This document shows positions 50,096 to 58,698 of a DNA stretch of 64,000 nucleotides, piece after piece. Every line of letters begins with the position of its first letter. Position 1 is the stretch's first letter. The stretch comes from Galdieria sulphuraria (lineage: Eukaryota; Rhodophyta; Bangiophyceae; Galdieriales; Galdieriaceae): positions 62,001 through 126,000 of the forward strand of contig NW_005178446.1 of the NCBI RefSeq assembly GCF_000341285.1, given 5' to 3'. Under the pieces are notes generated by a model. That model was not told the DNA's origin. It saw only the letters and a program-made list of their open reading frames with translations, and did no database searches. The translations under genes and the position numbers were made by a program.

Positions 50096-50181
50096 GCGGC
50101 CGTAACTCAGCGGTTAAGAATTCCGTCAAGAGTGCTTGCTTTACACGCAAGAAGTCGAGGGTTCGAATCCCTCCGGCCGTA
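50096..50181 (+). tRNA. tRNA-Val (anticodon UAC) with a D-loop intron
   Basis: Full cloverleaf: acceptor 50096-50102 (GCGGCCG) pairs with 50174-50180 (one G-U pair); D stem ACTC (50105-50108) with GAGT (50130-50133); anticodon stem CTTGC/GCAAG (50135-50139/50147-50151) around loop TTTACAC with anticodon TAC at 50142-50144; T stem GAGGG/CCCTC (50157-50161/50169-50173) with loop TTCGAAT; discriminator A at 50181. The D loop is 21 nt (50109-50129). A normal loop AGCGGTTA is followed by about 13 extra bases, 50117-50129, best explained as an intron at an ectopic D-loop position. There is no intron at the usual 37/38 site. Cyanidiophyte red algae are known for such ectopic tRNA introns. Confidence 0.9.
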
Positions 50182-50189
50182 CTTGACGA

Positions 50190-53220: not shown

Positions 53221-54849
53221 TTATATTCTATCAGCCAAAGAACTCTTTGACGAAATAAATATTTCCCTCCATAAATATGCTTGACTGAGAAGTATCTTTA
53301 CATTCGAATCAGTCCATATATCCTTTGGAATATTCTGCAGAAACAGAATAAGATCCTGAAACTCCATTCGAATCAAGTCTTTTTCAAAAAAGTGGAGTAG
53401 TGAAGCACAAATGAAAACATAGAAGCTTCCGAATCCATCCTCTTCACAAAGAACCGAATCCCACAATCTAATGACCACAGGAAAGGGTAACTCTCGAATA
53501 AGAAGACAATTAAACCATCGAAATGCAAATTGTACTAATTCTACTCCCTGCCTCTGGAAATGGCCATACAAGTTTGGGCAAACTCTGCCAAGTAATCTCT
53601 CCAATAATTGAATTCGCCTTTGTATACCTGGTTGAGCAAAGGTATAAAAGTCCTGAATACTTTCGAGAACTGAACTGAAGCACCAGTAAACGTCAGCCTC
53701 TAAATCATCTAACGCTGTATTTAGTTCATCTATATCTTCGAGGTTCAATACTCCGTCCTTTTCTACATACTGAATAGATGCACTCGAGAAACTTTCGGTC
53801 TCCACCGTAAAAGTAGGTCTAAACGTACTTGTTCTAGTTTGATAAACCTCTGAAAACAGGACATATACAAGAGGCATTAAAATATCATTCATTCCTTGAA
53901 CATAGCCACATGCCGGATGTCTAACTGACCATACAAACAAAATACGTTTGAGAAGTTCCTGTAGAGCTGGTAAACGAAACAAGTTGTAATCTGAACAGAT
54001 GCGAGGAACGTCCAGAGTGATCTGTCTCCACACCAACCTCTCTTGTTCTGTTTCTGACTTGCGGCTTTGAGAAAAAGCACGAGACAAACTAACTCGATAG
54101 TCTTCTCTTTTCCTCTTAACAACCTCATTTCTTCTCAAATTTACAATAGGCCAATAGCCTAAAAGTATTTTCCAGATAGTACCACGATAATCCTTTGGGG
54201 AGCCATGCCAAGCAAGCTGTTTCAAACGTTCCAAGTTGATGACAGACTGTTGTAAGAGCTCTTTCAATCGGCAGCACTCAGGAGACAATCTTTCCACTTC
54301 TCTCGGGATATCTGTTTCGTATAAAGCACAGTCCAACGAGTCCGACCCTTGTTTTTCGTCAGAGTCCAATTCCGTCACAGTCATACTCGACTCAATATTT
54401 GTGTCAAAGCTACCAGAATCATTTGACCTCTCCTCTCTACAATTGTTGTGAATTATTCTGTTACTTTGTTCTGCCACTCTTGTATCGGTTGCATCTTGTA
54501 ACTGTCGCTTCACCTCTTCGCCAACTTGGCGATCAACAACTTTATTCAAAGAAAAGGTTCGGTTATACTCTTCAAAAGATAATCTTGCCGCTCTTGGAGG
54601 TACTTTTGGTAGTATATCTTCATATGAAGTGGACCCAACGTTGTCAGCTCCGCTCATTTTTGCCAAAGAGTCTGCCAGAACGAAACCATAAGGGTCCTCT
54701 CCTGCCAGGTCACCTTCCACCTTATGCAAGTGAAGACTCATAAACTTTCTTTGAGGAAACTCCCAAAAACCTGGTTCGTAGAAGATTAGAGAAGCCACTG
54801 ATAGATTCTCATCCTCAAAGCGTGAAGAGTCCACATTTGTTGAAGACAT
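53221..54849 (-). CDS. TBC-domain Rab GTPase-activating protein, TBC1D22/Gyp1 type
   Basis: Single frame of 542 residues. A low-complexity N-terminal 190 residues precede the TBC domain: RLKQLAWHGSPKDYRGTIWK, ILLGYWPIVNLRR, ERLVWRQITLDVPRICSDYN (arginine finger in the IxxDxxR motif), RHPACGYVQGMNDILMPLVY (glutamine finger in YxQ), DLEADVYWCFSSVLESIQDF, QGVELVQFAFRWFNCLLIRE, LWDSVLCEEDGFGSFYVFIC. The layout RHPAxGYVQGMNDxxxP and the QVELxQFAFRWxNxLLxRE segment are those of Gyp1/TBC1D22, Golgi Rab (Ypt1/Rab33) GAPs. Both catalytic fingers are present. Rab partner inferred from the family. Confidence 0.88.
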   Translation of the reverse strand: MSSTNVDSSRFEDENLSVASLIFYEPGFWEFPQRKFMSLHLHKVEGDLAGEDPYGFVLADSLAKMSGADNVGSTSYEDILPKVPPRAARLSFEEYNRTFSLNKVVDRQVGEEVKRQLQDATDTRVAEQSNRIIHNNCREERSNDSGSFDTNIESSMTVTELDSDEKQGSDSLDCALYETDIPREVERLSPECCRLKELLQQSVINLERLKQLAWHGSPKDYRGTIWKILLGYWPIVNLRRNEVVKRKREDYRVSLSRAFSQSRKSETEQERLVWRQITLDVPRICSDYNLFRLPALQELLKRILFVWSVRHPACGYVQGMNDILMPLVYVLFSEVYQTRTSTFRPTFTVETESFSSASIQYVEKDGVLNLEDIDELNTALDDLEADVYWCFSSVLESIQDFYTFAQPGIQRRIQLLERLLGRVCPNLYGHFQRQGVELVQFAFRWFNCLLIRELPFPVVIRLWDSVLCEEDGFGSFYVFICASLLHFFEKDLIRMEFQDLILFLQNIPKDIWTDSNVKILLSQAYLWREIFISSKSSLADRI

Positions 54850-55111: not shown

Positions 55112-58100
55112 ATGATCCAGAAGCCTATTCCTTCGCTTTCTTGTCAACTCGCTTTCAGTTGTCTTTGTGTAAAATTAGAGACCAGCAAAACTTTGCCAAA
55201 TGTTCTTTCAGTTGGTCTAGCTCGCTTGTCGAGGGGTCCGTTCTGCTTTAGGATTAAAAACCAACGTGTACAGAAGTCTAGTCGACAACCACACAAATTT
55301 CTTTGTATAAACTCTGCTATCTCTTCCCAGAGATCTGTCCTGACACCTAAACTGATACTGCCACAGCTTCGAAAACTTTTGAAAGAATTGGGTCTCCAGG
55401 CTTTGGTAGTTGCCAATACTGATCCTCATGTGAGCTTGCATATTTTGTTCTGTTTCCACTTAAAGTTTTCTAGCTCTCTGAATATCCTCCAGCACATTTT
55501 AATAGGAGAGAATTTGTTTCAGGCTTTACAGGATCGGCTGGCACTGCCTTGGTTACAGAGAAAAGTGCCATTCTATGGACAGATGGGCGATATTTTCTTC
55601 TAGCGGAGAAAGAACTGGATGAAAACTGGAAACTTATGAAAGGTATTGTAGTTTGGGTCAATTTCAGTCCTCACGTGAATTTTTAGTTGGTATTGCAGGT
55701 TTCCCGACATTAGAAGAGTTTCTATCAGAAAACCTTCCAAAACAGTCAGTCGTTGGTATAGATCCCTATTCCCATTCGGTGTCGTTTGTTGAGAATTTGA
55801 GTAAAAAGTTATCCATTAAGGATATTTATATTCGTCTTTTGGATACAAATCCAGTTGATTTGTTGTGGAATGTTGGAAGACCCTCGCTACCAACCGATTC
55901 TATTCGGATACATCCGTTAGAGAACGCAGGTCAAAGCTGTTTTGAAAAGTTGGAAGATATTCGAGTAAGAATGCAAGAGTTGAATGTGGATATGTTACTT
56001 GTGTCACTTTTAGATGAAGTACGTAGTATATTGCATATGTCTTATTTCCAACATTTCTTTAGATTGCTTGGGTTTTAAATCTTCGTGGCTCAGATATACC
56101 GCATTGTCCTGTATTTTTAGCCTACTTCTTAGTTGGATTCAATCAGAACGTTCTCTATGTGAATCGTGAAAAGGTATTCGTGCAATTTTTATTTGATGTT
56201 TAGTTTATTTAGTGTTCAACAGATTCCAAGTTCGGTTGAGAGTTATTTGTATGAATGCAATATTGATATAAAACCATATGAAGCCATTTTGCCGGACTTG
56301 AAGAAATTTTCACAAGATAATAGGAAAATATGGTACGACCCACTAAGCACCAACGCAGCGTTAGGTTTTGCATGTCAACCAGGTGGCTTTCCTCAATCGA
56401 CACCGATTTCGTTGATGAAGGTTTGTTCTTGTTTACAGCATGAAATAAATGATCTTATACAAACTTAGGCTGTGAAAAATGATGCTGAAATTCGCGGAAT
56501 GAGAGAAGCACATATTAGAGATGGAGTTGCTTTGGTTCATTTTTTGAACTGGCTTGAAACGGAAGGAATTTCTAATGGAGTTAGTGAGTTTGAAGCCGCA
56601 GAAAAGCTTTTAGAGTAAGCTATGTGTTTGAATCCATTTTTGAAATTCCTATATGCATGCTTTGAACTACTTGCATAGATTTCGGTCGAGGCATGCAGAA
56701 TTTGTCACCGAAAGTTTTCCAACGATATGTGGTTCTGGTCCCAATGGCGCGATCATTCATTATCGTCCGATGCCGAGTGATGCAAGGCCTTTGAGTACGA
56801 AGGAGTTGATATTGTTAGATTCTGGTGGTCAGTATATGGATGGAACTACGGATGTAACGAGAACATTTCATTTTGGAACACCAAGTGAAAAGTAATTGAT
56901 TGCCATTTTTGTATTCAGTTTATTGATGCTCTTATTAGACAACGTGAATGCTTTACTCGAGTATTACAGGGCCACATATCTTTGGATACAGCAATCTTTC
57001 CCAAAGGCACTTTGGGATGCTTGTTGGATTCTTATGCACGTCGGAAACTTTGGGAATATGGACTCGATTATCGCCATGGAACAGGTACTCTAGACATCTT
57101 AATGATGGAAGGAATTGAAGTTTATATTTTATATCAATCAGGACACGGAATAGGAGCAGCTCTAAATGTACATGAGGGTCCTCATTCCATCAGTCCTCGC
57201 ATGGGAAATAACGTTTACTTGCGGCCTGGAATGTTTGTATCTAATGAGCCTGGATTCTATGAAGATGGTGAATTTGGGATAAGAATAGAGAATATTCTTC
57301 TGGTGGTCGAGAAGGATACCCCGTTTCGGTTTGTTTCGTTTGAGAATTGAATTGAAAAGTTTGTCTAACGTAACCTTTTTCAAGTTTTGGTGATATTCCT
57401 TTCTATGGATTTGAAGCTTTCACAATAGTTCCCATTCAACAGAAAATGATTAAAATCGAATTACTTGAAAAGCACGAAATTGACTGGATTGATCGATATC
57501 ATTCTCGCGTGTGGAAGATTCTAAACCCCAGAGTAGAAGATGCTAATGTGAAAGAATGGTATGTTGCTTTTTTTGATATATTTGAGTGTTGAAGCTTTGT
57601 GAAAGGTTGTGGAAAAGTACACGGCCTATCTTATCTACAAGTGATAAGAGTTTTCCAGAACAGCAATTTTCCACTTCACGTCGAAGCTTCCTTGGTTTCT
57701 TCTGTGGTCTTCTTGTATCGTCTCTGTTACCGAAGAAGAAACAGCTACAGGCCGTTGTAAGAATAGTCTACTCTTTTTGTACTTTTATAATTATCGATCG
57801 ATAGGAAATGGATAATGAGTCTTTATTCATATCGAAACAAGAGAATAAGAGACCAAAGATTGATCCAAAGATATCTGAGCCAGATATTACTTCGAAATGC
57901 TTTTTGTAAGTATTTAGAGTGATTGAGCTATTCAGCAGCCGACGTAACTGGTTATGTAGTGATTTAAAAGTGGAAAATCGTGGAATGAAGAGAGTTGTCA
58001 TTGGATTATATGGAGGTATGTGTTGTATTTGTTGAGGATTTCACTCAACAAAAGTACAATTTTTGAATAGGAGTTGCTCCAAAGACTTCTCAGTTGTTTG

Positions 58101-58675
58101 CTGATTTATGCGACTGCAATCGCTCATTTAGTTATTTGTAAGATTTGAGTTGTGCATGTAGAATTCTTACAGACTCTTATAAGTCGGTCCTCTTATGATT
58201 TGTAACAATAGGGGTTCTGAAGTTTTTCGAGTAATCGAAGGAATGAATATTCAGATAGGACGAAAGTTTTCCTTAGGTAAGCTTTCAACATTCGATTGAC
58301 TTTTGAGTAATTTACTTTATTGTTGATAGAAGAAGTTGGTGACTATAAAACAGCAAATTATGATTTCTTGGAAGATTGTTGTCAATTTCGACACAATATG
58401 GAAGGCCTTGTTTCCATGGTTCGGACGAAGCCTTCGAAGGATCTTGATTACCGTTTCTTTATAAGGTATGTATACATGCATACAAATTCTAAGTATACTC
58501 AAGTCCATATAGTACTGCTCCAGCCCCTTATTTGGACGACAAATATGTTACGTTTGGTAAAGTTATGGAGGGCATGGATTGGGTTCATGAAATAGAAAGA
58601 CTGAATACTAAAAAGCCAAGCAATCAGCCCATTTTGAAAGTGAAAGTGGTAGCTTGTGGACAACAAAAATTGTGA
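55112..58675 (+). CDS. Aminopeptidase P (M24B) in one frame with a Tat-like segment and a cyclophilin
   Basis: Seventeen phase-compatible exons: 55112-55429, 55474-55642, 55687-56018, 56063-56173, 56223-56420, 56469-56614, 56679-56891, 56939-57084, 57142-57328, 57385-57558, 57606-57756, 57805-57905, 57960-58015, 58071-58137, 58212-58276, 58330-58465, 58513-58675. First part: presequence-like N-terminus, then aminopeptidase P with [100 protein letters not shown], ending VKEWLWKSTRP as the family does. It removes N-terminal residues before proline. Without a stop follow [20 protein letters not shown] (twin-arginine, hydrophobic) and a cyclophilin: [73 protein letters not shown]. No in-frame ATG precedes the Tat-like part; if separate, the cyclophilin could only start at ATG 57808 without it. 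Confidence 0.7.
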
Positions 58676-58698
58676 GTTGTGTGATAAAATTGGAAACG

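What the first reader, a model, noticed from the sequence alone, without database searches (positions are those of the whole stretch)
55112..58675. Aminopeptidase P and cyclophilin appear to be read as one protein
All introns from the aminopeptidase P part to the cyclophilin part are 44-74 nt GT-AG and keep a single reading frame. The aminopeptidase reaches its normal family end (EWLWKSTRP) only if the intron at 57559-57605 is spliced, and that splice leads past any stop into the cyclophilin. The exon with the Tat-like segment (57606-57756) has no in-frame ATG, so it can hardly be the start of a separate gene. Biologically the pair makes sense: aminopeptidase P cuts only trans Xaa-Pro bonds and cyclophilins interconvert cis and trans. 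A fused peptide-degrading and proline-isomerising enzyme would be new to me.
Basis: partly seen in the sequence, partly recalled or inferred. Interest (0 to 1): 0.85.

Follow-up and report, generated by a model that had tools for sequence, protein, structure and literature searches.

The report
Two-compartment chloroplast fusion protein in Galdieria
In a hot-spring red alga one gene really does encode an aminopeptidase joined to a cyclophilin, but a conserved export signal between them suggests that one precursor supplies two chloroplast compartments rather than acting as one double enzyme.

Summary
Sixteen GT-AG introns (44-74 nt) leave one frame from 55112 to the stop at 58676-58678. The aminopeptidase P C-terminal domain is complete only if intron 57559-57605 is spliced, and the frame then runs into a cyclophilin. 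The fusion is already in databases: identical in G. sulphuraria, 81% identical in G. partita. Two partial proteins from unnamed sources cross the same junction. Intron 2 probably ends at 55686 (910 aa).

The 'joint enzyme' reading is not supported. Between the domains lies SRRSFL, a hydrophobic stretch and an alanine, like a Tat (thylakoid-lumen export) signal. SRRSFL is identical in 4 of 4 sequences, beside a linker with 1 of 13 ungapped columns identical. The closest stand-alone relative found, and five others, carry similar signals. The same genome has TatC, TatA and a PsbP-like protein with SRRNFL. The aminopeptidase has a transit-peptide-like N-terminus.

Best reading: a dual-destination precursor, probably cut into a stromal aminopeptidase P and a lumenal cyclophilin. 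Cleavage and locations are inferred. I found no description in print.

The parts
55112..58678 (+). Fused gene: aminopeptidase P plus cyclophilin, 17 exons, stop codon included
   Evidence: Spliced frame; identical database protein P0001 and G. partita P0002
55112..55363 (+). Residues 1-84: transit-peptide-like N-terminal extension
   Evidence: 13 K/R, 1 D/E, 15 S/T in 84 residues; no targeting predictor was available
55364..57630 (+). Aminopeptidase P (three-domain, XPNPEP1 type), exons 1-11 with introns
   Evidence: Pfam; 3ctz alignment E 7.5e-157
55643..55686 (+). Intron 2 with the probable true acceptor (the 906-aa model uses 55698)
   Evidence: P0002 and P0003 carry four extra residues here
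57559..57605 (+). Intron 10; its removal completes the aminopeptidase and opens the frame to the cyclophilin; retention would give aminopeptidase alone, lacking the domain's last residues
57631..57675 (+). Variable linker between aminopeptidase and Tat signal
   Evidence: 1 of 13 ungapped columns identical in four proteins
57676..57753 (+). Tat-type signal SRRSFL...LQA; SRRSFL is 57676-57693
   Evidence: SRRSFL identical in 4 of 4, final alanine invariant
57757..57804 (+). Intron 11; retention would end the protein shortly after the Tat signal
57961..58663 (+). Cyclophilin domain (Pro_isomerase, residues 746-902), exons 13-17 with introns
   Evidence: Pfam E 3.7e-24

Best explanation
A nuclear Galdieria gene encodes a plastid precursor of roughly 100 kDa laid out as transit peptide, aminopeptidase P, short linker, Tat signal, cyclophilin. 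SHOWN from sequence: the fused frame, both domains, and conservation of the frame and of the Tat core in 4 of 4 sequences that reach the junction. INFERRED: the precursor enters the plastid by its N-terminus; the aminopeptidase stays in the stroma; the linker is cut before the twin arginine, as in ordinary two-part lumen precursors; the Tat machinery takes the cyclophilin into the thylakoid lumen, where the signal is removed after the conserved alanine. In effect a stromal enzyme stands where a lumenal cyclophilin would have its transit peptide.
For: Fused frame in P0001 and P0002, and across the junction in P0003 and P0004. SRRSFL identical in 4 of 4, while the linker just before it has 1 of 13 ungapped columns identical; 43 of 62 identical in the aminopeptidase C-terminal domain; final alanine invariant. 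Same-genome signals of similar build: PsbP-like SRRNFL...SWA and PsbQ HRRKLL...ASA; TatC and TatA present. The best non-Galdieria hit, P0006, is stand-alone with leader + VRRELAQ + hydrophobic stretch + AWA and alone among 76 other rows has YLDDKY; five more stand-alone hits have SRRSFA. N-terminal 84 residues have 13 K/R and 1 D/E, whereas the paralogous aminopeptidase starts almost at the domain and ends ...WLQEKTCPLSK-stop. Exon 1 cannot join the Tat exon in frame.
Against: No transcript, protein or localisation data seen. The Tat and transit calls rest on motifs; no predictor and no structure model. An internal Tat signal behind a large enzyme is unusual and needs a cut that is not shown. 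Most cyclophilin hits have no Tat-like signal, the best solved-structure match is an ordinary cyclophilin, and the link to P0006 joins two long branches with support below the tree's starred level (93/98). P0003 and P0004 are partial and their DNA was not read.
Confidence: 0.6

Rival explanations
1. Fused but uncut in the middle: the Tat segment stays as a membrane anchor, with aminopeptidase P on the stromal face and cyclophilin in the lumen.
For: Same sequence evidence for a Tat signal; no cut in the linker is shown.
Against: The alanine at the expected cleavage site is invariant in four proteins; P0006 and the PsbP-like protein have cleavable-looking ends (AWA, SWA).
Confidence: 0.15
2. Alternative splicing or an internal start makes separate proteins: intron 10 or 11 retention gives aminopeptidase alone; Met 57808, or exon 1 joined to exon 12, gives cyclophilin without the Tat signal.
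For: Retention of either intron gives a stop, and the exon 1-12 join is in frame (301 aa). PMC5880011 (passages) reports 1766 alternatively spliced introns in G. sulphuraria, mostly by retention. P0003 and P0004 both end close to the window's intron 14 position.
Against: No such route gives a Tat-bearing cyclophilin with this transit peptide: of exons 1-10 only 6, 7, 9 and 10 are in phase with exon 11. Met 57808 is absent in P0003. Conservation of SRRSFL would be unexplained if the Tat form were never made on its own or as the fusion.
Confidence: 0.12
3. A single soluble enzyme in which cyclophilin isomerises Xaa-Pro bonds for the aminopeptidase.
For: The frame is fused; the five aminopeptidase metal-ligand positions are kept (ligand identities recalled); the cyclophilin keeps the Arg55 equivalent.
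Against: The Tat core is conserved between the two parts; 5 of 9 cyclophilin active-site positions are changed (positions recalled).
Confidence: 0.08
4. Two ordinary neighbouring genes merged by gene prediction.
For: Automated models can merge neighbours; no transcript evidence was seen here.
Against: No stop follows the aminopeptidase end in frame and no ATG precedes the Tat signal in its exon; the same frame is kept in diverged sequences.
Confidence: 0.05

Closest known systems
Plant PsbY polyprotein (PMC4823308, passages read)
   Same: One nuclear gene, one precursor, two mature thylakoid proteins
   Different: Two homologous small membrane proteins in one compartment; here two unrelated enzymes predicted in two compartments
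SODcp-RPL32 chimeric genes of Malpighiales (PMC8429499, passages read)
   Same: Two plastid proteins share one gene and one transit peptide
   Different: Two transcript types by alternative splicing are reported there; here no skip from exon 1 to the Tat exon keeps the frame; both partners there are not separated by a lumen signal (recalled)
Lumenal cyclophilins such as plant PnsL5 (7eu3 chain 5) and the stand-alone P0006 and SRRSFA hits
   Same: Cyclophilin fold; P0006 and five SRRSFA rows have a leader, twin arginine, hydrophobic stretch and alanine
   Different: Stand-alone; active-site region more regular except in P0006; PnsL5 is ninth in the list, behind ordinary cyclophilins
Human Xaa-Pro aminopeptidase 1 (3ctz)
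   Same: Aligned from residue 94 to 669, E 7.5e-157
   Different: Ends where the Galdieria protein continues; no match to the 84-residue extension or the cyclophilin
Euglena and dinoflagellate plastid polyproteins (search listings only)
   Same: Plastid proteins made as joined precursors
   Different: Not compared in detail; mostly repeats of one protein (recalled)

Membership tests
Aminopeptidase P, XPNPEP1 type | Creatinase N-domains, M24 domain and complete M24_C domain | tested here: met
   M24_C profile 1-63 of 63
Aminopeptidase P, XPNPEP1 type | Five metal-ligand residues | tested here: met
   Asp468, Asp479, His542, Glu576, Glu590 align with identical residues of 3ctz; which residues are ligands is recalled
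Cyclophilin | Pro_isomerase domain above Pfam cut-off | tested here: met
   86.2 bits against 21.7
Cyclophilin | Canonical active-site residues | tested here: inconclusive
   Arg55, Gln63, Phe113, Leu122 equivalents kept; Phe60, Met61, Ala101, Trp121, His126 changed (positions recalled)
Thylakoid Tat substrate | Twin arginine, hydrophobic stretch, small residue at the cut | tested here: met
   4 of 4 sequences; motif recalled
Thylakoid Tat substrate | Tat machinery in the same organism | tested here: met
   TatC E 5.1e-55 and TatA E 3.3e-13 in G000
Thylakoid Tat substrate | Delivery to the lumen | not testable with these tools
   Needs fractionation or import assay
Plastid polyprotein | One open frame for two mature proteins | tested here: met
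   (the frame; the two mature proteins are inferred)
Plastid polyprotein | Proteolytic separation after translation | not testable with these tools
   Needs immunoblot or N-terminal proteomics

The most novel reading that the evidence does not exclude
A whole stromal enzyme has taken the place of the transit peptide of a thylakoid-lumen protein: one precursor, conserved in Galdieria, is imported and split so that aminopeptidase P stays in the stroma and an internal Tat signal exports the cyclophilin. That would be a two-compartment plastid polyprotein of two unrelated enzymes.
Probability: 0.55. Interest if true: 0.7.

Novelty: new variant of a known kind. Interest (0 to 1): 0.52.

Why it matters
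If true, a Tat signal works after exposure inside a large imported precursor, and a lumen protein keeps its plastid targeting by being fused to a resident stromal enzyme instead of having its own transit peptide. It gives a natural substrate for asking where stromal processing ends and thylakoid export begins, and ties production of a stromal peptidase and a lumen cyclophilin together. It also corrects a database name that mentions only the aminopeptidase.

Tried and rejected
A DNA pattern for twin arginine over the genome gave fewer hits than its reversed control (216 against 297) and says nothing. The cyclophilin part alone as a single query found one protein, P0004; the four-sequence profile found 98, with only the 7990 candidates sharing most words scored. 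No protein search was left for the whole aminopeptidase P family, so the absence of the fusion outside Galdieria rests only, which find relatives sharing short exact words. Borrowing of the transit peptide by exon skipping was rejected for the Tat form because exon 1 to exon 11 is out of frame. The tree left out four of the 78 aligned rows (P0075, P0078, P0080, P0093). The RR test examined 101 proteins and flagged 17: 4 Galdieria-type, P0006, five SRRSFA rows, and seven that I do not count as Tat signals by eye (P0012, P0020, P0021, P0022, P0059, P0063, P0093). The NCBIfam scan of P0001 and P0006 gave only matches below curated cut-offs. Open frames at four other cyclophilin loci (a fifth, L038, was fetched but not read) added nothing.

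Full report
WHAT IS THERE. The window lies in a 12.05-Mb, 102-contig genome. Its protein at this place is identical to a database entry named 'Probable Xaa-Pro aminopeptidase P [Galdieria sulphuraria]' (P0001). Splicing 16 GT-AG introns of 44-74 nt gives one frame from ATG 55112 to TGA 58676-58678, 906 codons. Pfam places the two creatinase-type domains, the M24 catalytic domain, the M24 C-terminal domain (608-669, profile 1-63 of 63) and a cyclophilin domain (746-902) in this one protein. The M24_C profile and the alignment with human Xaa-Pro aminopeptidase 1 (3ctz) both end at residue 669 in exon 11, so intron 57559-57605 must be spliced for a complete aminopeptidase. Exon 11 then has no stop in frame and no in-frame ATG. 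One refinement: the acceptor of intron 2 is probably 55686, because P0002 and P0003 have four more residues there; that gives 910 aa. Residue numbers below follow the 906-aa model.

IS IT REAL. A search with residues 600-906 returned 3 proteins: P0001, P0002 (G. partita GpartN1_g5850.t1, 908 aa, 81% identity) and P0003 (source jgi, 659 aa, partial, 69%). A search with the cyclophilin part returned P0004 (source lgn, 221 aa, partial). P0002 has all five Pfam families; P0003 and P0004 have the aminopeptidase end, but Pfam does not score their short cyclophilin pieces. All four run from the aminopeptidase end through the linker and Tat segment into the start of the cyclophilin. P0003 and P0004 both stop just after FSYF, near the window's intron 14. 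I could not read their DNA, so whether they are spliced models, transcripts or intron-poor genes is unknown. P0005 (110 aa, source lgn) is a cyclophilin C-terminal half, 75% identical; that it is Galdieria is inferred. P0001 is listed on a contig of 191,687 bases while the window's contig has 165,106, so the frame is seen in more than one assembly. PMC13353863 (passages) says that G. partita has 7,832 genes with 16,347 introns; I did not see how the model g5850 was supported. No transcript evidence for the junction was seen.

WHAT LIES BETWEEN THE TWO ENZYMES. The junction reads ...WKSTRPI / [15 protein letters not shown] / [26 protein letters not shown] / VEMD.... In the four proteins SRRSFL is identical. 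By comparison 43 of 62 columns of the aminopeptidase C-terminal domain, 35 of 49 ungapped columns of the cyclophilin start, 1 of 13 of the linker, 3 of 11 of the hydrophobic stretch and 1 of 7 of the stretch before the cut are identical. The final alanine is invariant. This is the pattern of a Tat signal under selection (the consensus S-R-R-x-F-L is recalled). The same genome offers comparisons: a PsbP-like protein has NYSRRNFLNDWVWTSILLTGVGCFLGDSASWA before its mature part, and PsbQ has HRRKLLETLLTSSLFFLLPKNASA. TatC lies on contig C36 beside a frame that looks like cytochrome f (by eye), and TatA is on C38. The compartments of these proteins are inferred from family knowledge.

WHERE THE CYCLOPHILIN COMES FROM. 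A profile of the four tails found 98 proteins. Apart from P0004 and P0005 the best is P0006 (E 3.6e-26), a stand-alone 301-aa protein of unnamed source with a leader, VRRELAQ, a hydrophobic stretch and AWA before its cyclophilin. Among 76 non-Galdieria rows aligned, P0006 alone has YLDDKY at the W121-H126 positions (one row, P0080, has no letters there). In a 74-row tree it joins Galdieria with 93/98 support, below the starred level, and both are long branches, so this is suggestive only. Five further stand-alone hits have SRRSFA...ARA. So some relatives of this cyclophilin look like ordinary two-part lumen precursors. Against this, most hits have no such signal by the crude test, and the best solved structure is an ordinary cyclophilin (2haq, E 2.7e-28), with the lumenal PnsL5 ninth (E 1.3e-24). 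Of nine canonical active-site positions four keep the usual residue, including the Arg55 equivalent, so isomerase activity is possible but unproven (positions recalled).

WHERE THE AMINOPEPTIDASE SITS. It has an 84-residue extension with 13 K/R and 1 D/E, like a transit peptide (no predictor was available). The five metal-ligand positions (Asp468, Asp479, His542, Glu576, Glu590) match 3ctz (ligand identities recalled). The same genome has one other M24_C match, a stand-alone aminopeptidase on C19 that starts almost at the domain and stops after WLQEKTCPLSK. A cytosolic role for that copy is inferred. A chloroplast aminopeptidase P in plants is recalled, not looked up.

HOW IT PROBABLY WORKS. 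The best reading is one plastid precursor for two compartments: import by the N-terminal transit peptide, a cut in the linker, aminopeptidase P in the stroma, and Tat export of the cyclophilin with removal of the signal after the alanine. An uncut, membrane-spanning form is the main rival. Splicing alternatives exist: retention of intron 10 or 11 would give aminopeptidase alone, and exon 1 joined to exon 12 would give a transit peptide on a cyclophilin without the Tat signal. But exon 1 cannot join exon 11 in frame, so a Tat-bearing cyclophilin cannot get this transit peptide by skipping the enzyme. An internal start at Met 57808 would lack the Tat signal, and that Met is missing in P0003. Intron retention is common in this species (PMC5880011, passages), so an aminopeptidase-only isoform is possible.

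COMPARISON AND NOVELTY. The nearest precedent is PsbY, one nuclear gene giving two thylakoid proteins (PMC4823308, passages); another is SODcp-RPL32 (PMC8429499, passages). Euglena and dinoflagellate polyproteins were seen in search listings only. Searches of 5.39 million open papers for Galdieria with cyclophilin (13 papers, none on this by title), Galdieria with twin-arginine and lumen (0), aminopeptidase P with cyclophilin and gene fusion (0), and cyclophilin with Cyanidioschyzon and thylakoid lumen (0) found no description. Most subscription papers are not held, so this is weak evidence. The fused sequence itself is public; the reading as a two-compartment precursor appears new. I rate it a new variant of a known kind.

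Noticed in passing
window 55643-55698: Intron 2 has two acceptors 12 nt apart, both in frame; the database model uses the downstream one, relatives favour the upstream one.
   Followed up: yes
window 53221-54849, minus strand: Divergently oriented upstream gene, a single-exon 542-codon frame with a Rab-GTPase-TBC domain.
   Followed up: partly
window 50110-50182: tRNA-Val (tac), the only tRNA that ARAGORN reports in the window.
   Followed up: no
G000 C2:294461-294975 and C63:3574-4088 (L010, L011, L013, L014): Two cyclophilin loci with near-equal scores and the same frame breaks, probably a recent duplicate.
   Followed up: no
P0003 and P0004 C-termini: Both partial relatives end a few residues after FSYF, near the window's intron 14; an intron there may be kept or shifted in those sources.
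   Followed up: partly
L047 and L046 (G000 C1 and C40): PsbP-like and PsbQ proteins of the same genome with clear twin-arginine signals, SRRNFL and HRRKLL.
   Followed up: partly
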